From Actinomadura rubteroloni (GTDB taxonomy: Bacteria > Actinomycetota > Actinomycetes > Streptosporangiales > Streptosporangiaceae), in the NCBI RefSeq assembly GCF_002911665.1, contig NZ_MTBP01000004.1, positions 1 to 64,000 on the forward strand: a stretch of 64,000 nucleotides of DNA, in the 5' to 3' direction. A program made the translations under genes and the position numbers. How positions within the stretch are numbered: position 1 is the first letter of the stretch; every line of letters starts with the position of its first letter. This document shows, in pieces, positions 29,390 through 35,996 of the stretch. A model generated the notes under the pieces. It was not told the DNA's origin. It worked only from the letters and a program-made list of their open reading frames with translations, and made no database searches.

Positions 29390-32206
29390 ATGACCGAGAC
29401 GGTGAGCGGATCGTCGGCCCGGCGCGGCAAGGGAGGCCGCAAGGGCCTCAAGGTCGAGCGGATCTTCACGACGGAGGGCGTGCATCCGTACGACGAGATC
29501 CGCTGGGAGCGGCGCGACGTCGTCATGACCAACTGGCGCGACGGCTCGGTCAACTTCGAGCAGCGCGGCGTCGAGTTCCCCGACTTCTGGTCGCTGAACG
29601 CGGTCAACATCGTCACGTCGAAGTACTTCCGCGGCGCCGTCGGCACGGCCGCGCGCGAGTGGAGCCTGAAGCAGCTCATCGACCGCGTCGTCCGTGCCTA
29701 CGTGGACACGGGCCTCGCGGAGGGCTACTTCGCGTCCTCGGCCGACGCCGAGATCTTCGAGCACGAGCTGACCTACGCCCTGGCCCACCAGCTCTTCAGC
29801 TTCAACTCTCCCGTCTGGTTCAACGTCGGCACCAAGTCCCCGCAGCAGGTCTCGGCGTGTTTCATCCTGTCGGTGGACGACACGATGGAGTCGATCCTCG
29901 ACTGGTACAAGGAGGAGGGGATCATCTTCAAGGGCGGGTCGGGCGCCGGACTCAACCTGTCGCGGATCCGCTCGTCCAAGGAACTGCTGTCGTCCGGCGG
30001 GACGGCGAGCGGGCCGGTGTCGTTCATGCGCGGCGCGGACGCGTCCGCCGGGACGATCAAGTCGGGCGGCGCGACCCGCCGGGCCGCCAAGATGGTCGTG
30101 CTGGACGTGGACCACCCCGACGTGGCCGAGTTCATCGAGACCAAGGCGCGCGAGGAGGACAAGATCCGCGCGCTGCGCGACGCCGGGTTCGACATGGACC
30201 TCGGCGGCCGGGACATCGCGAGCGTCCAGTACCAGAACGCCAACAACTCGGTGCGCGTGTCCGACGAGTTCATGCGCGCGGTCGAGGAGGACGGCGAGTT
30301 CGGGCTGCGGTCGCGGCTGAGCGGCGAGGTCATCGAGAAGGTCCGCGCCAAGGACCTGTTCCGGCTGATGGCCAAGGCGGCGTGGGGGTGCGCCGACCCG
30401 GGCATCCAGTACGACGACACGATCAACGACTGGCACACCAACCCCGAGACCGGCCGCATCACCGCGAGCAACCCGTGCTCGGAGTACATGTCGCTGGACA
30501 ACTCGTCCTGCAACCTCGCGAGCATCAACCTGCTGAAGTTCCTCGGCGCGGGCAACGTGTTCGACGTCGAGCGGTTCGCCAAGCTCACCGAGCTGATCAT
30601 CACGGCGATGGACATCTCGATCACGTTCGCCGACTTCCCGACCGAGAAGATCGCGCGGACGACGCGGGACTACCGGCAGCTCGGCATCGGCTACGCCAAC
30701 CTCGGCGCGCTGCTCATGGCGAGCGGGCACGCCTACGACTCCGAGGGCGGGCGGTCGCTCGCCGCCGCGATCACGTCGCTGATGACGGGCGTCGCCTACC
30801 GGCGGTCGGCGGAGCTGGCGGGGATCGTCGGCCCGTACGAGGGGTACGCGCGCAACGCCGACGCCCACAAGCGGGTCATGCGCAAGCACGCCGCCGCCAA
30901 CGACGACCTGCGGACGCTGGACGCGGTGGACCGCGCCGTCCACAAGGCCGCCACCCGCCAGTGGGCCGAGTGCCTGAAGCTCGGCGAGCGCAACGGCTAC
31001 CGCAACGCGCAGGCGTCGCTGCTCGCGCCGACCGGCACCATCGGCCTGATGATGGACTGCGACACCACCGGCATCGAGCCCGACCTCGCGCTGATGAAGT
31101 TCAAGAAGCTCGTCGGCGGCGGGTCCATGCAGATCGTCAACCAGACGGTGCCGCGCGCCCTCACCCAGCTCGGCTACCAGCAGGAGCAGATCGAGGCGAT
31201 CGTCGAGTACATCGCCGAGAACGGGCACGTCGTGGACGCGCCGGGGCTGCGTCCCGAGCACTACGAGGTGTTCGACTGCGCGATGGGCGAGCGGGCGATC
31301 AGCCCGATGGGGCACGTCCGGATGATGGCGGCGGTGCAGGCGTTCCTGTCCGGGGCGATCTCCAAGACCGTCAACATGCCGGAGCAGGCGACGATCGAGG
31401 ACATCGAGCGCGTCTACTTCGAGGGCTGGAAGCTCGGCCTGAAGGCGCTCGCGATCTACCGCGACAACTGCAAGGTGGGCCAGCCGCTGTCGGCGGCGGG
31501 CAAGAAGGAGACCGCCGCTCCCGCGGCCGTGGCCGAGCCGGCCGAGGTGCGGCCCGTCCGCAAGCGGCTGCCCAAGCAGCGTCCGGCGACCGTGACGCGG
31601 TTCTCGGTGGCGGGCGCCGAGGGCTACATGACGGCGTCGTCCTACCCCGACGACGGGCTCGGCGAGGTCTTCCTCAAGCTCGGCAAGCAGGGGTCGACGC
31701 TCGCGGGCGTCATGGACGCCTTCTCGATGGCGATCTCCATCAGCCTCCAGTACGGCGTGCCGCTGGAGACGTGGGTGGAGAAGTTCACGAACATGCGGTT
31801 CGAGCCGGCCGGGATGACCGACGACCCCGACATCCGCATGGCGACGTCGGTGATGGACTACATCTTCCGCCGGCTGGCGCTGGACAACATGCCGTACGAG
31901 CAGCGCGCCGAACTCGGCATCTTCACCGCCGAGGAGCGCGCGCGGCAGGCCAGCGGCGAGGACCCGGCCGCGCTGCGCGCCGAGGACCACGACGCGCTGG
32001 CGCAGTCGGCGGAGATCACCCGTCCGGCGCCGTCGCCCGCCGTCGCCGCGCCGCCCGCCCCCGCGCACTCCTCGATGGAGATCATCGAGAGCACGCAGGG
32101 CCGGACGGCCGACGCGCCGCTCTGCATGACCTGCGGCACGAAGATGCGCCCCGCCGGTAGCTGCTACGTCTGCGAAGGCTGCGGCTCCACCAGCGGCTGC
32201 AGCTAA
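29390..32206 (+). CDS. nrdJ: Vitamin B12-dependent ribonucleotide reductase (class II)
   Basis: A 938-residue adenosylcobalamin-dependent reductase that makes deoxyribonucleotides with or without oxygen. Seen are FNSPVWFNVG, NPCSEYMSLDNSSCNLASIN around the active-site cysteine and glutamate, APTGTIGLMMDCDTTGIEPD, and the C-terminal thiol tail (CYVCEGCGSTSGCS) that rereduces the site. GGAGGGGGA precedes the ATG. A proline/alanine-rich linker (about residues 860-905) joins the tail. I saw no cobalamin riboswitch in the 111 bases between nrdR and nrdJ, as expected for an enzyme that itself uses B12. Confidence 0.95.
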   Translation: MTETVSGSSARRGKGGRKGLKVERIFTTEGVHPYDEIRWERRDVVMTNWRDGSVNFEQRGVEFPDFWSLNAVNIVTSKYFRGAVGTAAREWSLKQLIDRVVRAYVDTGLAEGYFASSADAEIFEHELTYALAHQLFSFNSPVWFNVGTKSPQQVSACFILSVDDTMESILDWYKEEGIIFKGGSGAGLNLSRIRSSKELLSSGGTASGPVSFMRGADASAGTIKSGGATRRAAKMVVLDVDHPDVAEFIETKAREEDKIRALRDAGFDMDLGGRDIASVQYQNANNSVRVSDEFMRAVEEDGEFGLRSRLSGEVIEKVRAKDLFRLMAKAAWGCADPGIQYDDTINDWHTNPETGRITASNPCSEYMSLDNSSCNLASINLLKFLGAGNVFDVERFAKLTELIITAMDISITFADFPTEKIARTTRDYRQLGIGYANLGALLMASGHAYDSEGGRSLAAAITSLMTGVAYRRSAELAGIVGPYEGYARNADAHKRVMRKHAAANDDLRTLDAVDRAVHKAATRQWAECLKLGERNGYRNAQASLLAPTGTIGLMMDCDTTGIEPDLALMKFKKLVGGGSMQIVNQTVPRALTQLGYQQEQIEAIVEYIAENGHVVDAPGLRPEHYEVFDCAMGERAISPMGHVRMMAAVQAFLSGAISKTVNMPEQATIEDIERVYFEGWKLGLKALAIYRDNCKVGQPLSAAGKKETAAPAAVAEPAEVRPVRKRLPKQRPATVTRFSVAGAEGYMTASSYPDDGLGEVFLKLGKQGSTLAGVMDAFSMAISISLQYGVPLETWVEKFTNMRFEPAGMTDDPDIRMATSVMDYIFRRLALDNMPYEQRAELGIFTAEERARQASGEDPAALRAEDHDALAQSAEITRPAPSPAVAAPPAPAHSSMEIIESTQGRTADAPLCMTCGTKMRPAGSCYVCEGCGSTSGCS

Positions 32207-32219
32207 CCGAACGCCCCGC

Positions 32220-32255
32220 GAGCCGGGGGCCGGGCACCCGCCCGGCCCCCGGCTC
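32220..32255. terminator. Strong hairpin between nrdJ and the Shedu gene
   Basis: A perfect 16-bp stem: 32220-32235 begins GAGCCGGGGG and 32240-32255 ends CCCCCGGCTC, with a four-base loop. It lies between convergent genes, 13 bases after the nrdJ stop and two bases from the stop of the minus-strand gene. Confidence 0.85.
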
Positions 32256-32257
32256 CG

Positions 32258-34228
32258 TTACGCCTGGTCGTCGGCGCCTAGTTCGGGGTCTGGGCCTTGG
32301 GCGCTGTCGTCCGGCGTCCAGTGCTCGGTCAGGTCGAGGTTCCGTTCAGCGCGGTCGATCAACTGCTTGTAGCTGATCACTTCGACTCTGCTCAGATGTG
32401 AGTTGAGGACGCGCAGTGTTTCGTTGATCGTACGCTCGCTCACGTTCTCCTCGAACTCAGGATGGCCGACGACGACTGTGGCGCTGGCCCGCCTTGTATC
32501 GATCTCGAACTCGTCGAGCAGTTCGCTTCTTCGCTCGTCGAGCAAGGTCATGTAGTTCATCACTTGGCCGACGCCTTCGTGGACGGCCCGTGCCGCGACG
32601 AAGCCGCTCCGGTGTTTTTTAACAATTCGTAGCGATGGTTTCTTCAGCTCTACGATGTGGAGGACACCGTCCGGTCGCAGTAGCGGGATGTCGAGTTCGA
32701 GGCCCGGTGTGAGCCGACGGCGGACGGCTTCGTTCACGTACTCGCCGCCGAAAATCCACGACAATTTTTTCAAGGCTTGATGGACTTCGCCTTCGCTACT
32801 TGACCTGGACTCGACCAGCACTTTCAATTCGGCCAGCTTTTCTCGCCTCAACTGCAGTTGTGCCGCTTCGAGGACGGTCGCCGAGTCGCCGCGGTCCAGC
32901 AACTGGTTGATCGCCTCTTCGAGGTCGGGATCGTCGTCCCATGGATCTTCTTCGTCTTCTTCGTCGGCAAAGCTGATCCCGTCCTTGGCGGCTCGCAATG
33001 CGGGAAAACATTGCCACCGGGCGAGGCCGCCGTCATTGAACCCTTCGCCGAAGCCGTGAAGGTGGGGGTCCTCGGTGTTAACTTCTACGGGCTCCCGGTT
33101 GGTCTCCTCGGCGTTAGTTTCCACGTGTTCGGCAAGTTTCTGCATGCCATGGTAGGTGACAAGGTTTTGCAGGAACAAGGCTGGCTTATCGCCCGTGTAG
33201 AGGTGTGTGTACTCTCGTTCGAGGTCGAGACCCAGAAGTCCCCTGTTGCGTTCTCGGAACATCATTCGAAATACGGCCGGTACGTTCCCCGCAAGCCATG
33301 TAAAGTGGGTCGTTCTCAATCGCGCGCACGGGTATAGTCGATGGAAAATGGGGGCGGGGAAGGGTAGCAAATCCTCGTGAAGGATTGCGAAGACCTCTCC
33401 AGGATGTCCAGCGCAGGCTCCCTGGAGCATGGCTTTCCATTTCTCGCCTATCCGCAACCAGATTGCGTGGACCTCGTCGGGTGGAGAGGTGACGTTGTTC
33501 ATGGCTGCACGCTGTACCCAGTTCTTTTGCTGTTCCGCGAGAGTGGCAATGGCCTTGTCGGGTCGAATGCCCTCCTCGATCTTTTTCAAGTATTTCGTAA
33601 AGACGTAGCTACGCGAAATCAGCCGGCCTGCCGTCTCTGCATCCCATTCGTCCGAATTTAGCGGCGCAAATTCACGTTCCGCTGCCGCCAGGAAATCCTC
33701 ATATTTCTCCCAGCGGCCATATGGAACGCGAGACGCTGTTTGATGGCGCAGTGCTGCTGCCGCGATGATGATCGGAAGTCGGCTGGGGATTTCTTCCAGT
33801 ATGGACTCGGTCAGTTGCTTCCTGCGTGAAAGGCAGAGCTGCCAGACCTCCAGAAGAGAGGCCTCCGTGAGCGTCGGATGCTCTTCGGGTAGCGTGCTCG
33901 GTGAGAAGATCGAGAGATCGAAGTCGCCCTCAGCGAAACGAATCGCCTTCCTGATGGTCTCAGTATCGAATTTGAGGAGAGCCCGCGCCGCCGTGAGATA
34001 GGTGGCCAGAGTGCCGTCGGGCGCGCAGTGCAGGCCCCCGGGCTGGGCGACGTCCGCGAGCGTCCCGCTATACGGCTGGGTCTGGACGATCTCTCGCAGA
34101 GCGTCGTTGAGTACCCGGCACGTCCGGTCTCCGTGCCAGATCTTGCCCGAACGGCTGCGCCATAGTTTCAGCTCTACGCCGCCGAAGGGGCCTAGCGGCA
34201 CGTCCTCCCGGCTCAGTGGCTCGAACAT
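32258..34228 (-). CDS. Shedu-family (DUF4263) anti-phage nuclease with unrecognised N-terminal region
   Basis: A 656-residue protein (numbering from an in-frame ATG nine bases earlier). Residues about 482-620 form a Shedu/DUF4263 PD-(D/E)xK-type nuclease domain: D516 in LELDIPLL, E530 and K532 in HIVELKKP, Q558 in EGVGQVMNY, then RRASATVVVGHP. Known SduA proteins defend against phage, with variable N-terminal regions thought to sense infection. Residues 1-420 match nothing I know; Cys and His recur (IWHGDRTC, GGLHC). An acidic stretch (about 424-441) and a charged helix join the halves. G+C is about 35-36 per 60 bases in rows counted, well below the neighbours, suggesting transfer. AGGA eight bases before the ATG at 34228 favours that start. 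Confidence 0.82.
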   Translation of the reverse strand: MFEPLSREDVPLGPFGGVELKLWRSRSGKIWHGDRTCRVLNDALREIVQTQPYSGTLADVAQPGGLHCAPDGTLATYLTAARALLKFDTETIRKAIRFAEGDFDLSIFSPSTLPEEHPTLTEASLLEVWQLCLSRRKQLTESILEEIPSRLPIIIAAAALRHQTASRVPYGRWEKYEDFLAAAEREFAPLNSDEWDAETAGRLISRSYVFTKYLKKIEEGIRPDKAIATLAEQQKNWVQRAAMNNVTSPPDEVHAIWLRIGEKWKAMLQGACAGHPGEVFAILHEDLLPFPAPIFHRLYPCARLRTTHFTWLAGNVPAVFRMMFRERNRGLLGLDLEREYTHLYTGDKPALFLQNLVTYHGMQKLAEHVETNAEETNREPVEVNTEDPHLHGFGEGFNDGGLARWQCFPALRAAKDGISFADEEDEEDPWDDDPDLEEAINQLLDRGDSATVLEAAQLQLRREKLAELKVLVESRSSSEGEVHQALKKLSWIFGGEYVNEAVRRRLTPGLELDIPLLRPDGVLHIVELKKPSLRIVKKHRSGFVAARAVHEGVGQVMNYMTLLDERRSELLDEFEIDTRRASATVVVGHPEFEENVSERTINETLRVLNSHLSRVEVISYKQLIDRAERNLDLTEHWTPDDSAQGPDPELGADDQA

Positions 34229-34406
34229 TGTCTGCATCCTTTTGGTGGAGGGATGTTCGTCAGTCTTTCAGGGGTCACTGACGCCTTGGGCACAGACCGG
34301 CTTGGACGTTGATGTGCTCGGTGCCTGTCGTCGCCGAGCAGGTGGGGTGAGGATTCGGGGTGGGTGGTTGAGGGGCACGGGAGGTGGGGGTCACGTTGGG
34401 TGCGGG

Positions 34407-34437
34407 TTGACCTCTAGTGCGGTTGAGGTTGGAGGGT
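34407..34437 (+). promoter_or_regulatory. Candidate MerR/SoxR-type promoter of the quinone oxidoreductase gene
   Basis: TTGACC (34407-34412) overlaps the dyad CCTCTAG-TGCG-GTTGAGG (34411-34428), the same length and arms (CCTC..GAGG) as SoxR boxes. A GAGGGT at 34432-34437 would be a weak -10 at the 19-bp spacing typical of MerR-activated promoters. It lies 30 bases upstream of the ATG. Confidence 0.5.
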
Positions 34438-34466
34438 TGGGGTGTCGATCGAAAGGGGTGTGGCAC

Positions 34467-35447
34467 ATGCGTGCTGTTGTCGTTACGGCGTTCGGGGGAC
34501 CGGACGTGTTGGTGGCGAAGGAGGTGCCGGAGCCTGGTGTGGGGGACGGGCGGGTGCTCGTCCGGGTGGAGGTCGCCGAGATCAACTTTGTGGAGACGCA
34601 GTTGCGGCGGGGGTTCTCGCCGGGGCCGCCGTTGCCCGAGGTGCCGTTCGTGCCCGGCGGGGGTGTCGGGGGGACGGTCGTGGAGGTCGGGGGCGGTGTC
34701 GATCCCGGGTGGGTCGGGCGGCGCGTCGTCACGCGGACGGTCGATGGGCGCGGTGGGAATGCCGAGTTCGCTGTCGCGGACGCCGAGTTCCTGGTGCCGG
34801 TGCCGGACGGGCTTGGGACGCCCGAGGCCGCCGCTTTGCTGAACGATGGGCAGACGGCGCTCGCGTTGTTCGAGCGCGCCGCGATCCGGCCCGGGGAATG
34901 GGTGCTGGTCGAGGCGGCGGCCGGGGGGCTCGGGAGCCTGCTCGTTCAGCTCGCGCGCGGTGCCGGGGCGCGGGTGGTGGGCGCGGCCGGTAGCTCCGCG
35001 AAGCTGGACGTGGCGCGTGCGCTGGGTGCCGAGGCGGTCGTGGACTACTCGCGTGACGGGTGGACGGACGCCGTCCGGGCCGCGACCGGCGGGCGCGGGC
35101 CCGATGTCGTGTTCGACGGGGTCGGCGGGGCGATCGGCCGGGCGGCGTTCGAGGTCACGGCGCGCGGGGGACGGTTCTCGATTCACGGCGCGTCCAGCGG
35201 GGCGGCGACGTCGGTCGACGCGGCGGAGGCCGCCGCGCGCGGGGTCACCGTGATCGGGCTCGATCAGCTCTTCGCGCTGGCCGGTGCGGCGGATGCCCGG
35301 GACCGGGTCGCGCGGGTGCTGGCGGACGCCGCGGCGGGACGGCTCCGGCCGGCCATCGGGCGCACGTTCCCGCTCGCGGACGCGGCGGAGGCGCATGCCG
35401 CGATGGAAGCGCGCTCGGTGCCGGGGAAGACGCTCCTCGTCGTCTGA
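34467..35447 (+). CDS. NADPH-dependent quinone oxidoreductase-like alcohol dehydrogenase
   Basis: A 326-residue medium-chain dehydrogenase of the zinc-free quinone oxidoreductase type. It opens with MRAVVVTAFGGPDVL, has the NADPH-binding motif VEAAAGGLGSLLVQLARGAG (about residues 147-166), and NDGQTALALFERA; no structural zinc cysteines are present. It probably reduces quinones or enones in detoxification, in keeping with the SoxR/MerR-like box upstream. The ATG follows a GAAAGGGG ribosome-binding site. Bases 34229-34466, between this gene and the divergent Shedu gene, hold only that promoter. Confidence 0.87.
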   Translation: MRAVVVTAFGGPDVLVAKEVPEPGVGDGRVLVRVEVAEINFVETQLRRGFSPGPPLPEVPFVPGGGVGGTVVEVGGGVDPGWVGRRVVTRTVDGRGGNAEFAVADAEFLVPVPDGLGTPEAAALLNDGQTALALFERAAIRPGEWVLVEAAAGGLGSLLVQLARGAGARVVGAAGSSAKLDVARALGAEAVVDYSRDGWTDAVRAATGGRGPDVVFDGVGGAIGRAAFEVTARGGRFSIHGASSGAATSVDAAEAAARGVTVIGLDQLFALAGAADARDRVARVLADAAAGRLRPAIGRTFPLADAAEAHAAMEARSVPGKTLLVV

Positions 35448-35528
35448 GTGCTGCGACGGGGGCGGGCGCGGGGCCGTGCGGCGGCCCCGCGCCCTTCGGC
35501 GGTCCGCCGGGCGGTCGACAATGGGGGC

Positions 35529-35996
35529 ATGGCCAGAACGCATCATTACGGACTTGCCGTCACGTGGACCGGGAACACCGGGACCGGGACGAGCGGATAC
35601 CGCGCCTACGAGCGGGCGCACGATCTGAGCGCCGAAGGCAAGCCGGTCATCGGCGGGTCCTCCGATCCGGCGTTCCGGGGCGATCCGGCGCGGTGGAATC
35701 CCGAGGAACTGCTCGTCGCGTCGCTGTCGCAGTGCCACATGCTCTGGTACCTGGGGCTTTGCGCGGCGGAGGGCGTCGTCGTCACCGGCTACGTGGACCG
35801 TCCCGAGGGGACCATGAGCGAGGAGCGGGACGGGTCCGGACGGTTCCAGGAGGTCGTCCTGCGTCCCGAGGTGACGCTCGCGCCCGGCACGGACGTCGAG
35901 CGGGCTCGCGCCCTGCACGAGCGCGCCCACGAGATGTGCTTCATCGCGTCCTCCGTCAACTTCCCGGTGCGGCACGAACCGGTGTTCGGGGGCTAG
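35529..35996 (+). CDS. OsmC family peroxiredoxin-like protein
   Basis: A 155-residue OsmC/Ohr-fold protein. The two family cysteines are visible in LSQCHMLWYLGLC and in AHEMCFIASSVNFPV, and the helical segment NPEELLVASLSQCHM is standard. These proteins reduce organic hydroperoxides with cysteine thiols. GACAAT lies six bases before the ATG, so it may be leaderless with its own promoter. It follows the quinone oxidoreductase gene by 81 bases, a likely stress-protection neighbourhood. Confidence 0.85.
   Translation: MARTHHYGLAVTWTGNTGTGTSGYRAYERAHDLSAEGKPVIGGSSDPAFRGDPARWNPEELLVASLSQCHMLWYLGLCAAEGVVVTGYVDRPEGTMSEERDGSGRFQEVVLRPEVTLAPGTDVERARALHERAHEMCFIASSVNFPVRHEPVFGG

What the first reader, a model, noticed from the sequence alone, without database searches (positions are those of the whole stretch)
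32258..34228. Shedu-family nuclease with a ~420-residue unknown sensor-like region, as a lone GC-poor insert between nrdJ and a housekeeping gene
The C-terminal domain has the Shedu/DUF4263 residues (D516, E530, K532, Q558 in the numbering from the first ATG), while residues 1-420 match no family I can name and contain paired His/Cys segments. G+C in rows counted is 35-36 of 60, against 41-44 in neighbours. Shedu proteins carry varied N-terminal regions that decide what is sensed; a new one may define a new trigger. No integrase or partner gene is present, so it appears to act alone.
Basis: partly seen in the sequence, partly recalled or inferred. Interest (0 to 1): 0.78.

Follow-up and report, generated by a model that had tools for sequence, protein, structure and literature searches.

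The report
Shedu nuclease with borrowed sensor protein
A probable one-gene phage-defence nuclease in which a Shedu-type DNA-cutting domain is joined to an undescribed, probably metal-binding protein that other actinobacteria make on its own, once at the corresponding chromosomal spot without the nuclease, so what it senses can be tested piece by piece.

Summary
ORF 32258-34237(-) carries a Shedu C-terminal domain (Pfam SduA_C E 1.6e-15; PADLOC SduA E 1.6e-81) with the named residues D516/E530/K532/Q558. It lies alone in a 2,140-bp GC-poor insert (59.4%) after nrdJ; a close relative has 74 bp there. The first ~420 residues match nothing in Pfam, PADLOC, NCBIfam or PDB sequences.

New here: those ~420 residues are a protein family of their own. 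One Streptomyces genome encodes a freestanding version (35% identity over residues 5-417, E 1e-76), antisense beside nrdJ as in the window, without the nuclease. Weaker relatives are freestanding in Curtobacterium and other Streptomyces. The first ~85 residues form a conserved H-x4-C...HC (or CxxC) module, probably zinc-binding. It also starts ~665-760-aa proteins; two sit in a conserved MADS-like/AIPR/Nsn cluster, and a divergent copy lies beside ABC-3C genes.

Best reading: a Shedu nuclease whose usual N-terminal half was replaced by an existing sensor-like protein that licenses cleavage. Shedu membership is well supported; sensing, metal binding and anti-phage activity are inferred. The N-terminal structure model was unusable (pLDDT 39); the module alone folds with fair confidence (79), without PDB match in the look made. 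New variant of a known kind.

The parts
32258..34237 (-). Shedu-family ORF; likely start ATG 34228 (AAGG upstream), alternative ATG 34237
32978..34216 (-). N-terminal region (residues 5-417 from ATG 34228), homologous to a freestanding Streptomyces protein (148/421 identical, E 1e-76)
33977..34213 (-). H-x4-C ... H-C module (residues 6-84), putative metal-binding; 36 of 79 residues identical to the G1271 relative
33164..33328 (-). second conserved block (residues 301-355; 31 of 55 identical to the G1271 relative)
32918..32977 (-). acidic linker and probable fusion junction between N-terminal family and Shedu part
32333..32917 (-). Shedu SduA part matching PADLOC PDLC00401 positions 201-398 (protein residues 441-635); Pfam SduA_C at 32357-32803
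32564..32692 (-). PD-(D/E)xK-type residues D516, E530, K532, Q558 (numbered from ATG 34237)
32220..32255 (.). perfect 16-bp hairpin between the nrdJ and Shedu stop codons; a similar hairpin is seen by eye after nrdJ in G016
32264..34403 (.). 2,140-bp GC-poor insert; replaced by 74 bp in G016
29390..32206 (+). left flank: vitamin B12-dependent ribonucleotide reductase (nrdJ)
34467..35447 (+). right flank: quinone-oxidoreductase-like gene

Best explanation
The gene encodes a single-protein Shedu-type defence nuclease. Its C-terminal PD-(D/E)xK domain is an ordinary SduA nuclease of the PADLOC PDLC00401 clade. The N-terminal half usual in that clade has been replaced by a ~420-residue actinobacterial protein that also exists freestanding. 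By analogy with characterised Shedu proteins, this N-terminal part holds the nuclease inactive until it meets an infection signal and then licenses DNA cleavage. The conserved Cys/His module at its start most likely binds zinc and contacts nucleic acid or a partner protein. Shown: nuclease family and residues, domain swap, freestanding homologue, foreign insert at a variable site. Inferred: autoinhibition, signal recognition, zinc, and anti-phage activity.
For: SduA_C and PADLOC hits. Three same-genus SduA proteins match PDLC00401 nearly end to end (positions 2 to 400 or 401 of 404), whereas the window protein matches only positions 201-398. C-terminal identity to four same-genus SduA proteins is 69-91 of 198 residues. 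A freestanding N-terminal homologue lies in a Streptomyces genome beside nrdJ, with weaker freestanding relatives in Curtobacterium and Streptomyces. The module is shared with proteins in a conserved defence-gene cluster (hhalign probability 96.4). [quoted passage not shown]).
Against: No functional data. The window gene has housekeeping neighbours, not a defence island. The N-terminal half has no annotated domain, and its predicted structure was not interpretable. Metal binding is read from conserved residues only; the window type has HC where other types have CxxC, and C68 lines up in some alignments but not in others. A fourth same-genus SduA (G023) also lacks a match to the first 175 positions of PDLC00401, so N-terminal variety in this clade is not unique to the window. 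The G1271 homologue has no Shedu match in the 14 kb examined, so the two parts do not need each other everywhere.
Confidence: 0.6

Rival explanations
1. Canonical DNA-end sensing (a special case of the best reading): the N-terminal part is a DNA-end clamp, like that of E. coli SduA, and the protein cuts at a set distance from free ends. The trigger would then not be new, only the clamp.
For: End sensing with an N-terminal clamp is a described Shedu mechanism (passages of PMC12904381).
Against: No sequence or profile similarity of the N-terminal part to any PDB chain; the freestanding forms have no Shedu domain to clamp for.
Confidence: 0.3
2. The N-terminal family is a regulator or immunity-like partner of several effectors, acting in trans when freestanding and in cis here. 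It restrains the nuclease rather than recognising phage.
For: Module proteins lie beside different candidate effectors: an AIPR gene directly downstream (L099, L102), ABC-3C genes (L069), CoiA-nuclease genes (L177, and L068 with a broken copy), and an uncharacterised 743-aa ORF in two genomes, one of them with both genes broken.
Against: Several members have no recognised effector next to them; no control was run for chance association with defence genes.
Confidence: 0.25
3. The protein is a house DNA-repair or plasmid-control nuclease carried at the nrdJ locus, not a phage-defence gene.
For: Neighbours are lexA, nrdR and nrdJ; a homologue of the N-terminal part is also beside LexA, NrdR and nrdJ genes in Streptomyces.
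Against: The insert is GC-poor, absent from the empty site of a near relative, and its full-length N-terminal family is rare; the C-terminal domain matches SduA defence models.
Confidence: 0.1
4. The gene is a recently captured, non-functional fusion under decay.
For: Foreign codon use (GC3 0.70); related loci in other genomes are broken (G012, G1309, G753 contig C410, L109).
Against: The frame is intact over 659 codons, a plausible ribosome site is present, and catalytic and Cys/His residues are conserved.
Confidence: 0.1

Closest known systems
Shedu (SduA), PADLOC PDLC00401 clade; Pfam PF14082
   Same: C-terminal nuclease domain, conserved residues, single-gene organisation, patchy presence.
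   Different: Residues 1-440 do not match the first 200 positions of the PDLC00401 model; residues 5-417 belong to a separate actinobacterial protein family.
VcSduA, a Shedu with an N-terminal GHKL ATPase (PMC12137116, passages seen)
   Same: A Shedu nuclease domain joined to an unrelated regulatory N-terminal part.
   Different: Pfam reports no ATPase domain in the window protein.
Freestanding ~435-aa protein in Streptomyces genome G1271 (unnamed; L166 6155-7459)
   Same: Homologous over residues 5-417, same His/Cys residues, same antisense position next to nrdJ.
   Different: No Shedu domain, and no Shedu match in the 14 kb examined.
About 665-760-aa proteins of the same genus and Streptomyces (L099-L102, L167-L177)
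   Same: Share the N-terminal [DE][IV]PLGP...H-x4-C module.
   Different: CxxC instead of HC, a second such motif near the C-terminus in ten of eleven read, otherwise different; in two loci followed by an AIPR gene.

Membership tests
Shedu (SduA) | C-terminal SduA_C/DUF4263 domain above the curated cut-off | tested here: met
   58.1 bits, cut-off 27, E 1.6e-15; PADLOC SduA E 1.6e-81
Shedu (SduA) | PD-(D/E)xK-type catalytic residues | tested here: met
Shedu (SduA) | Single-gene system with variable N-terminal region | tested here: met
   no other gene evident in the insert; N-terminal region differs from that of four same-genus SduA proteins
Shedu (SduA) | N-terminal region of an already described Shedu type | tested here: inconclusive
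   no hit in Pfam, PADLOC, NCBIfam; the paper that classifies Shedu N-termini (Gu et al. 2025) is not held and was not read
Shedu (SduA) | Anti-phage activity, oligomeric nuclease | not testable with these tools
   needs experiments
Known zinc-finger families | Match to a curated zinc-finger model or solved fold | tested here: not met
Known zinc-finger families | Conserved set of Cys/His ligands | tested here: inconclusive
   H32 and C37 invariant; C68 invariant but not; fourth ligand differs between types (HC or CxxC)

The most novel reading that the evidence does not exclude
The ~420-residue protein and its Cys/His module are an undescribed actinobacterial defence sensor that is plugged into different nuclease effectors, in cis as a Shedu fusion and in trans elsewhere (AIPR/AbiU, ABC-3C, CoiA-like nucleases). 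The window gene would be the fusion that gives its function away.
Probability: 0.3. Interest if true: 0.75.

Novelty: new variant of a known kind. Interest (0 to 1): 0.5.

Why it matters
What the diverse N-terminal parts of Shedu proteins detect is, as far as I know, open for most of them. Here the N-terminal part exists naturally with and without the nuclease, at corresponding sites beside nrdJ, and in freestanding relatives. That gives a natural set of constructs (nuclease alone, sensor alone, fusion) for asking what it binds and whether it restrains the nuclease. It also flags an unannotated Cys/His module found in several actinobacterial defence loci.

Tried and rejected
AlphaFold2 of the whole N-terminal region gave pLDDT 38.6 and was not used. 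The module alone gave pLDDT 78.8, pTM 0.62, but no PDB match by VIA-align, which only re-aligned Foldseek's top 194 chains; the separate Foldseek job could not be placed because the machine was busy, and the viral library was not asked. Alignments of all module types had no stretch conserved enough for the search for related loci. A two-row module alignment and the Shedu C-terminal part found no confirmed relative in viral contigs, the corrected pattern none there, and phage records none. Plasmid records: the window protein matched four, over its C-terminal part only; the 754-aa protein two and the 431-aa protein one, all in Streptomyces; the G1271 homologue none.

How hits were thinned. Loose module searches (37 of 60 genomes reported; 83 of 394) were followed only for G034 and G753, the two with E of about 1e-5 or less besides the window; most other rows were not read, and some true members (G458, G022, G012, G031) were recognised only later. 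One search reported 27 of 341 genomes; I kept 6 (G000, G034, G458, G022, G012, G031), read and dropped 7 (L075, L077, L079, L080, L084, L086, L089), and dropped 14 unread for weak E-values (0.007 or worse). One search reported 19 of 323; I kept 18 and dropped G1176, unread, because it matched outside the module. One search gave 10 places; I dropped one (L107, Clostridiales, 37-codon frame); of the nine kept, L109 is broken after the module and L112 is cut by the end of the held DNA.

I did not claim enrichment near defence genes. and 94/95 scanned 24 proteins, three of them module proteins and one ORF (743 aa) twice, and two further neighbours in Pfam only (AIPR in L099; a tRNA-synthetase-like gene in L174). 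Neighbours of L100, L106, L108, L171-L173, L175, L176 and L178 were not scanned (the 743-aa ORF of L175 was, in another genome), L168 was not gene-called, and no control loci were scanned. A Ser/Thr kinase near the module gene in L167 was not counted, since I recall such kinases as common in these genomes. Similarity of the C-terminal motif of the long family to the window module is not supported (hhalign probability 8%). One literature search for MADS gene names returned nothing useful.

Full report
What is there. Pfam finds one family, SduA_C (PF14082), at residues 479-627, E 1.6e-15. PADLOC finds SduA models, best PDLC00401 at residues 441-635, E 1.6e-81. The named residues D516, E530, K532, Q558 are present and identical in four same-genus SduA proteins. 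The first 448 residues give nothing in Pfam, PADLOC or NCBIfam. phmmer of the whole protein against PDB sequences gave two chance-level hits (best E 0.7), and a profile of the N-terminal family gave none.

The insert. nrdJ (NF005122) and a quinone-oxidoreductase-like gene flank the ORF. In relative G016 (nrdJ tail 97% identical), window 31900-32263 (93.8%) and 34404-35600 (88.2%) align to stretches 74 bp apart, so the window carries a 2,140-bp insert. A second same-genus genome, G003, also has the oxidoreductase within 1.5 kb of nrdJ. Of 36 genomes searched, 34 had nrdJ and 30 gave a locus; in those 30 tails of 1.5 kb the Shedu protein was found only in the window's own. GC is 0.594 in the insert against 0.726 in the window; GC3 of the ORF is 0.70 against 0.98 for nrdJ. 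No terminal repeats were found. What follows nrdJ differs among the genomes, by crude gene calls.

The nuclease half is ordinary, the N-terminal half is swapped. SduA proteins of G018, G027 and G002 match PDLC00401 from position 2 to 400 or 401 of 404; the window protein matches only 201-398. The fourth, G023, matches only 176-398, so N-terminal variety within this clade is not unique to the window. C-terminal identity to the four is 91, 89, 82 and 69 of 198 residues.

The N-terminal half is a protein family of its own. In 323 genomes of the genus of G753, searched with a module profile, 18 had module proteins by my reading (19 reported). The genus is Streptomyces: G753 contig C334 and L111, titled Streptomyces sp. 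WAC06614, have the same length and carry the same 743-aa ORF. One of the 18, G1271, encodes a protein of about 435 residues aligned to window residues 5-417 (148/421 identical, E 1e-76). It lies antisense directly after nrdJ, with LexA and NrdR genes upstream, as in the window, but has no Shedu domain, and no Shedu match lies in the 14 kb examined. Two segments are well kept: residues 6-84 (36 of 79) and 301-355 (31 of 55). A Curtobacterium protein of 410 residues aligns to residues 4-178 (30%, E 6e-14). A Streptomyces 431-residue family aligns to the window module and, more weakly, to the G1271 protein over 351 columns (24.5%, E 1e-11). None of these three has a Pfam family. A DNA pattern for the motif with one fixed spacing found 10 places in the genome collection, nine of them real by reading (eight Streptomyces, one Curtobacterium) and one chance; none in viral contigs. 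The full-length family is rare: 3 of 374 class genomes, the window's included, one of the three being only a module match.

Contexts of module proteins. In G458 and G031 (same genus) a 754-760-residue module protein is followed by an AIPR gene (AbiU model in PADLOC for L102) and flanked by mad6-, mad7- and NsnA/B/C-model genes, with 62.9-90.3% identity between the two clusters; G012 has a decayed version. In G034 a divergent module protein lies beside ABC-3C genes matching PDC-M68A/B. In Streptomyces: next to a SLFN_AlbA_2 gene (L104; its 98.5% identical counterpart in L105), near a TIR/ThsB gene (L169), near OLD-like and CoiA-nuclease genes (L177), next to an uncharacterised 743-residue ORF in two genomes (L067, L175), and at other loci with no recognised defence gene. 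Only a subset of neighbours was scanned and no control was run, so association with defence genes is suggestive only. The window gene itself has housekeeping neighbours.

How it probably works. Papers describe Shedu as a common DUF4263 nuclease under diverse N-terminal regulatory domains, and E. coli SduA as a tetramer whose N-terminal clamp binds DNA ends before nicking (passages only). By analogy, the window's N-terminal part should restrain the nuclease and recognise something made during infection. What it recognises cannot be told from sequence. The Shedu classification paper (Gu et al. 2025) was not held, so whether this N-terminal type is listed there is unknown; the listings of the library searches and the passages seen showed no description of it.

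Verdict. A real Shedu-family gene with an N-terminal half not found in the libraries searched, and, more usefully, one whose N-terminal half exists naturally without the nuclease. New variant of a known kind; function untested.

Noticed in passing
L099 (G458:C1:270500-284500) and L102 (G031:C52:314500-328500): Conserved cluster of mad7- and mad6-like genes, a 754-760-aa two-motif Cys/His protein, AIPR, and NsnC-NsnB-NsnA; a decayed copy in L101 (G012). The Cys/His protein (tested for L102) has no PADLOC family and no Pfam family above cut-off.
   Followed up: partly
L067 6840-9068 and L175 (G1309): A 743-aa ORF without Pfam or PADLOC match follows the 431-aa module gene in two Streptomyces genomes; its C-terminus looks like a PD-(D/E)xK nuclease by eye. 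In L175 the first gene has lost its middle and the second is interrupted.
   Followed up: partly
L099-L102, L167, L169, L170, L171, L174, L176: The long module family has a second Cys/His motif near its C-terminus (HSPxC...CSKCGGY in most), similar in layout to the first (hhalign probability 71%; sequences).
   Followed up: partly
window 32206 onward and nrdJ tails L114-L134: The gene that follows nrdJ differs widely among genomes of this genus, by crude gene calls, so the site seems to tolerate insertions.
   Followed up: partly
L068 (G753 contig C410): A broken second copy of the 431-aa module gene lies directly upstream of a CoiA-nuclease-like ORF in the same genome.
   Followed up: no
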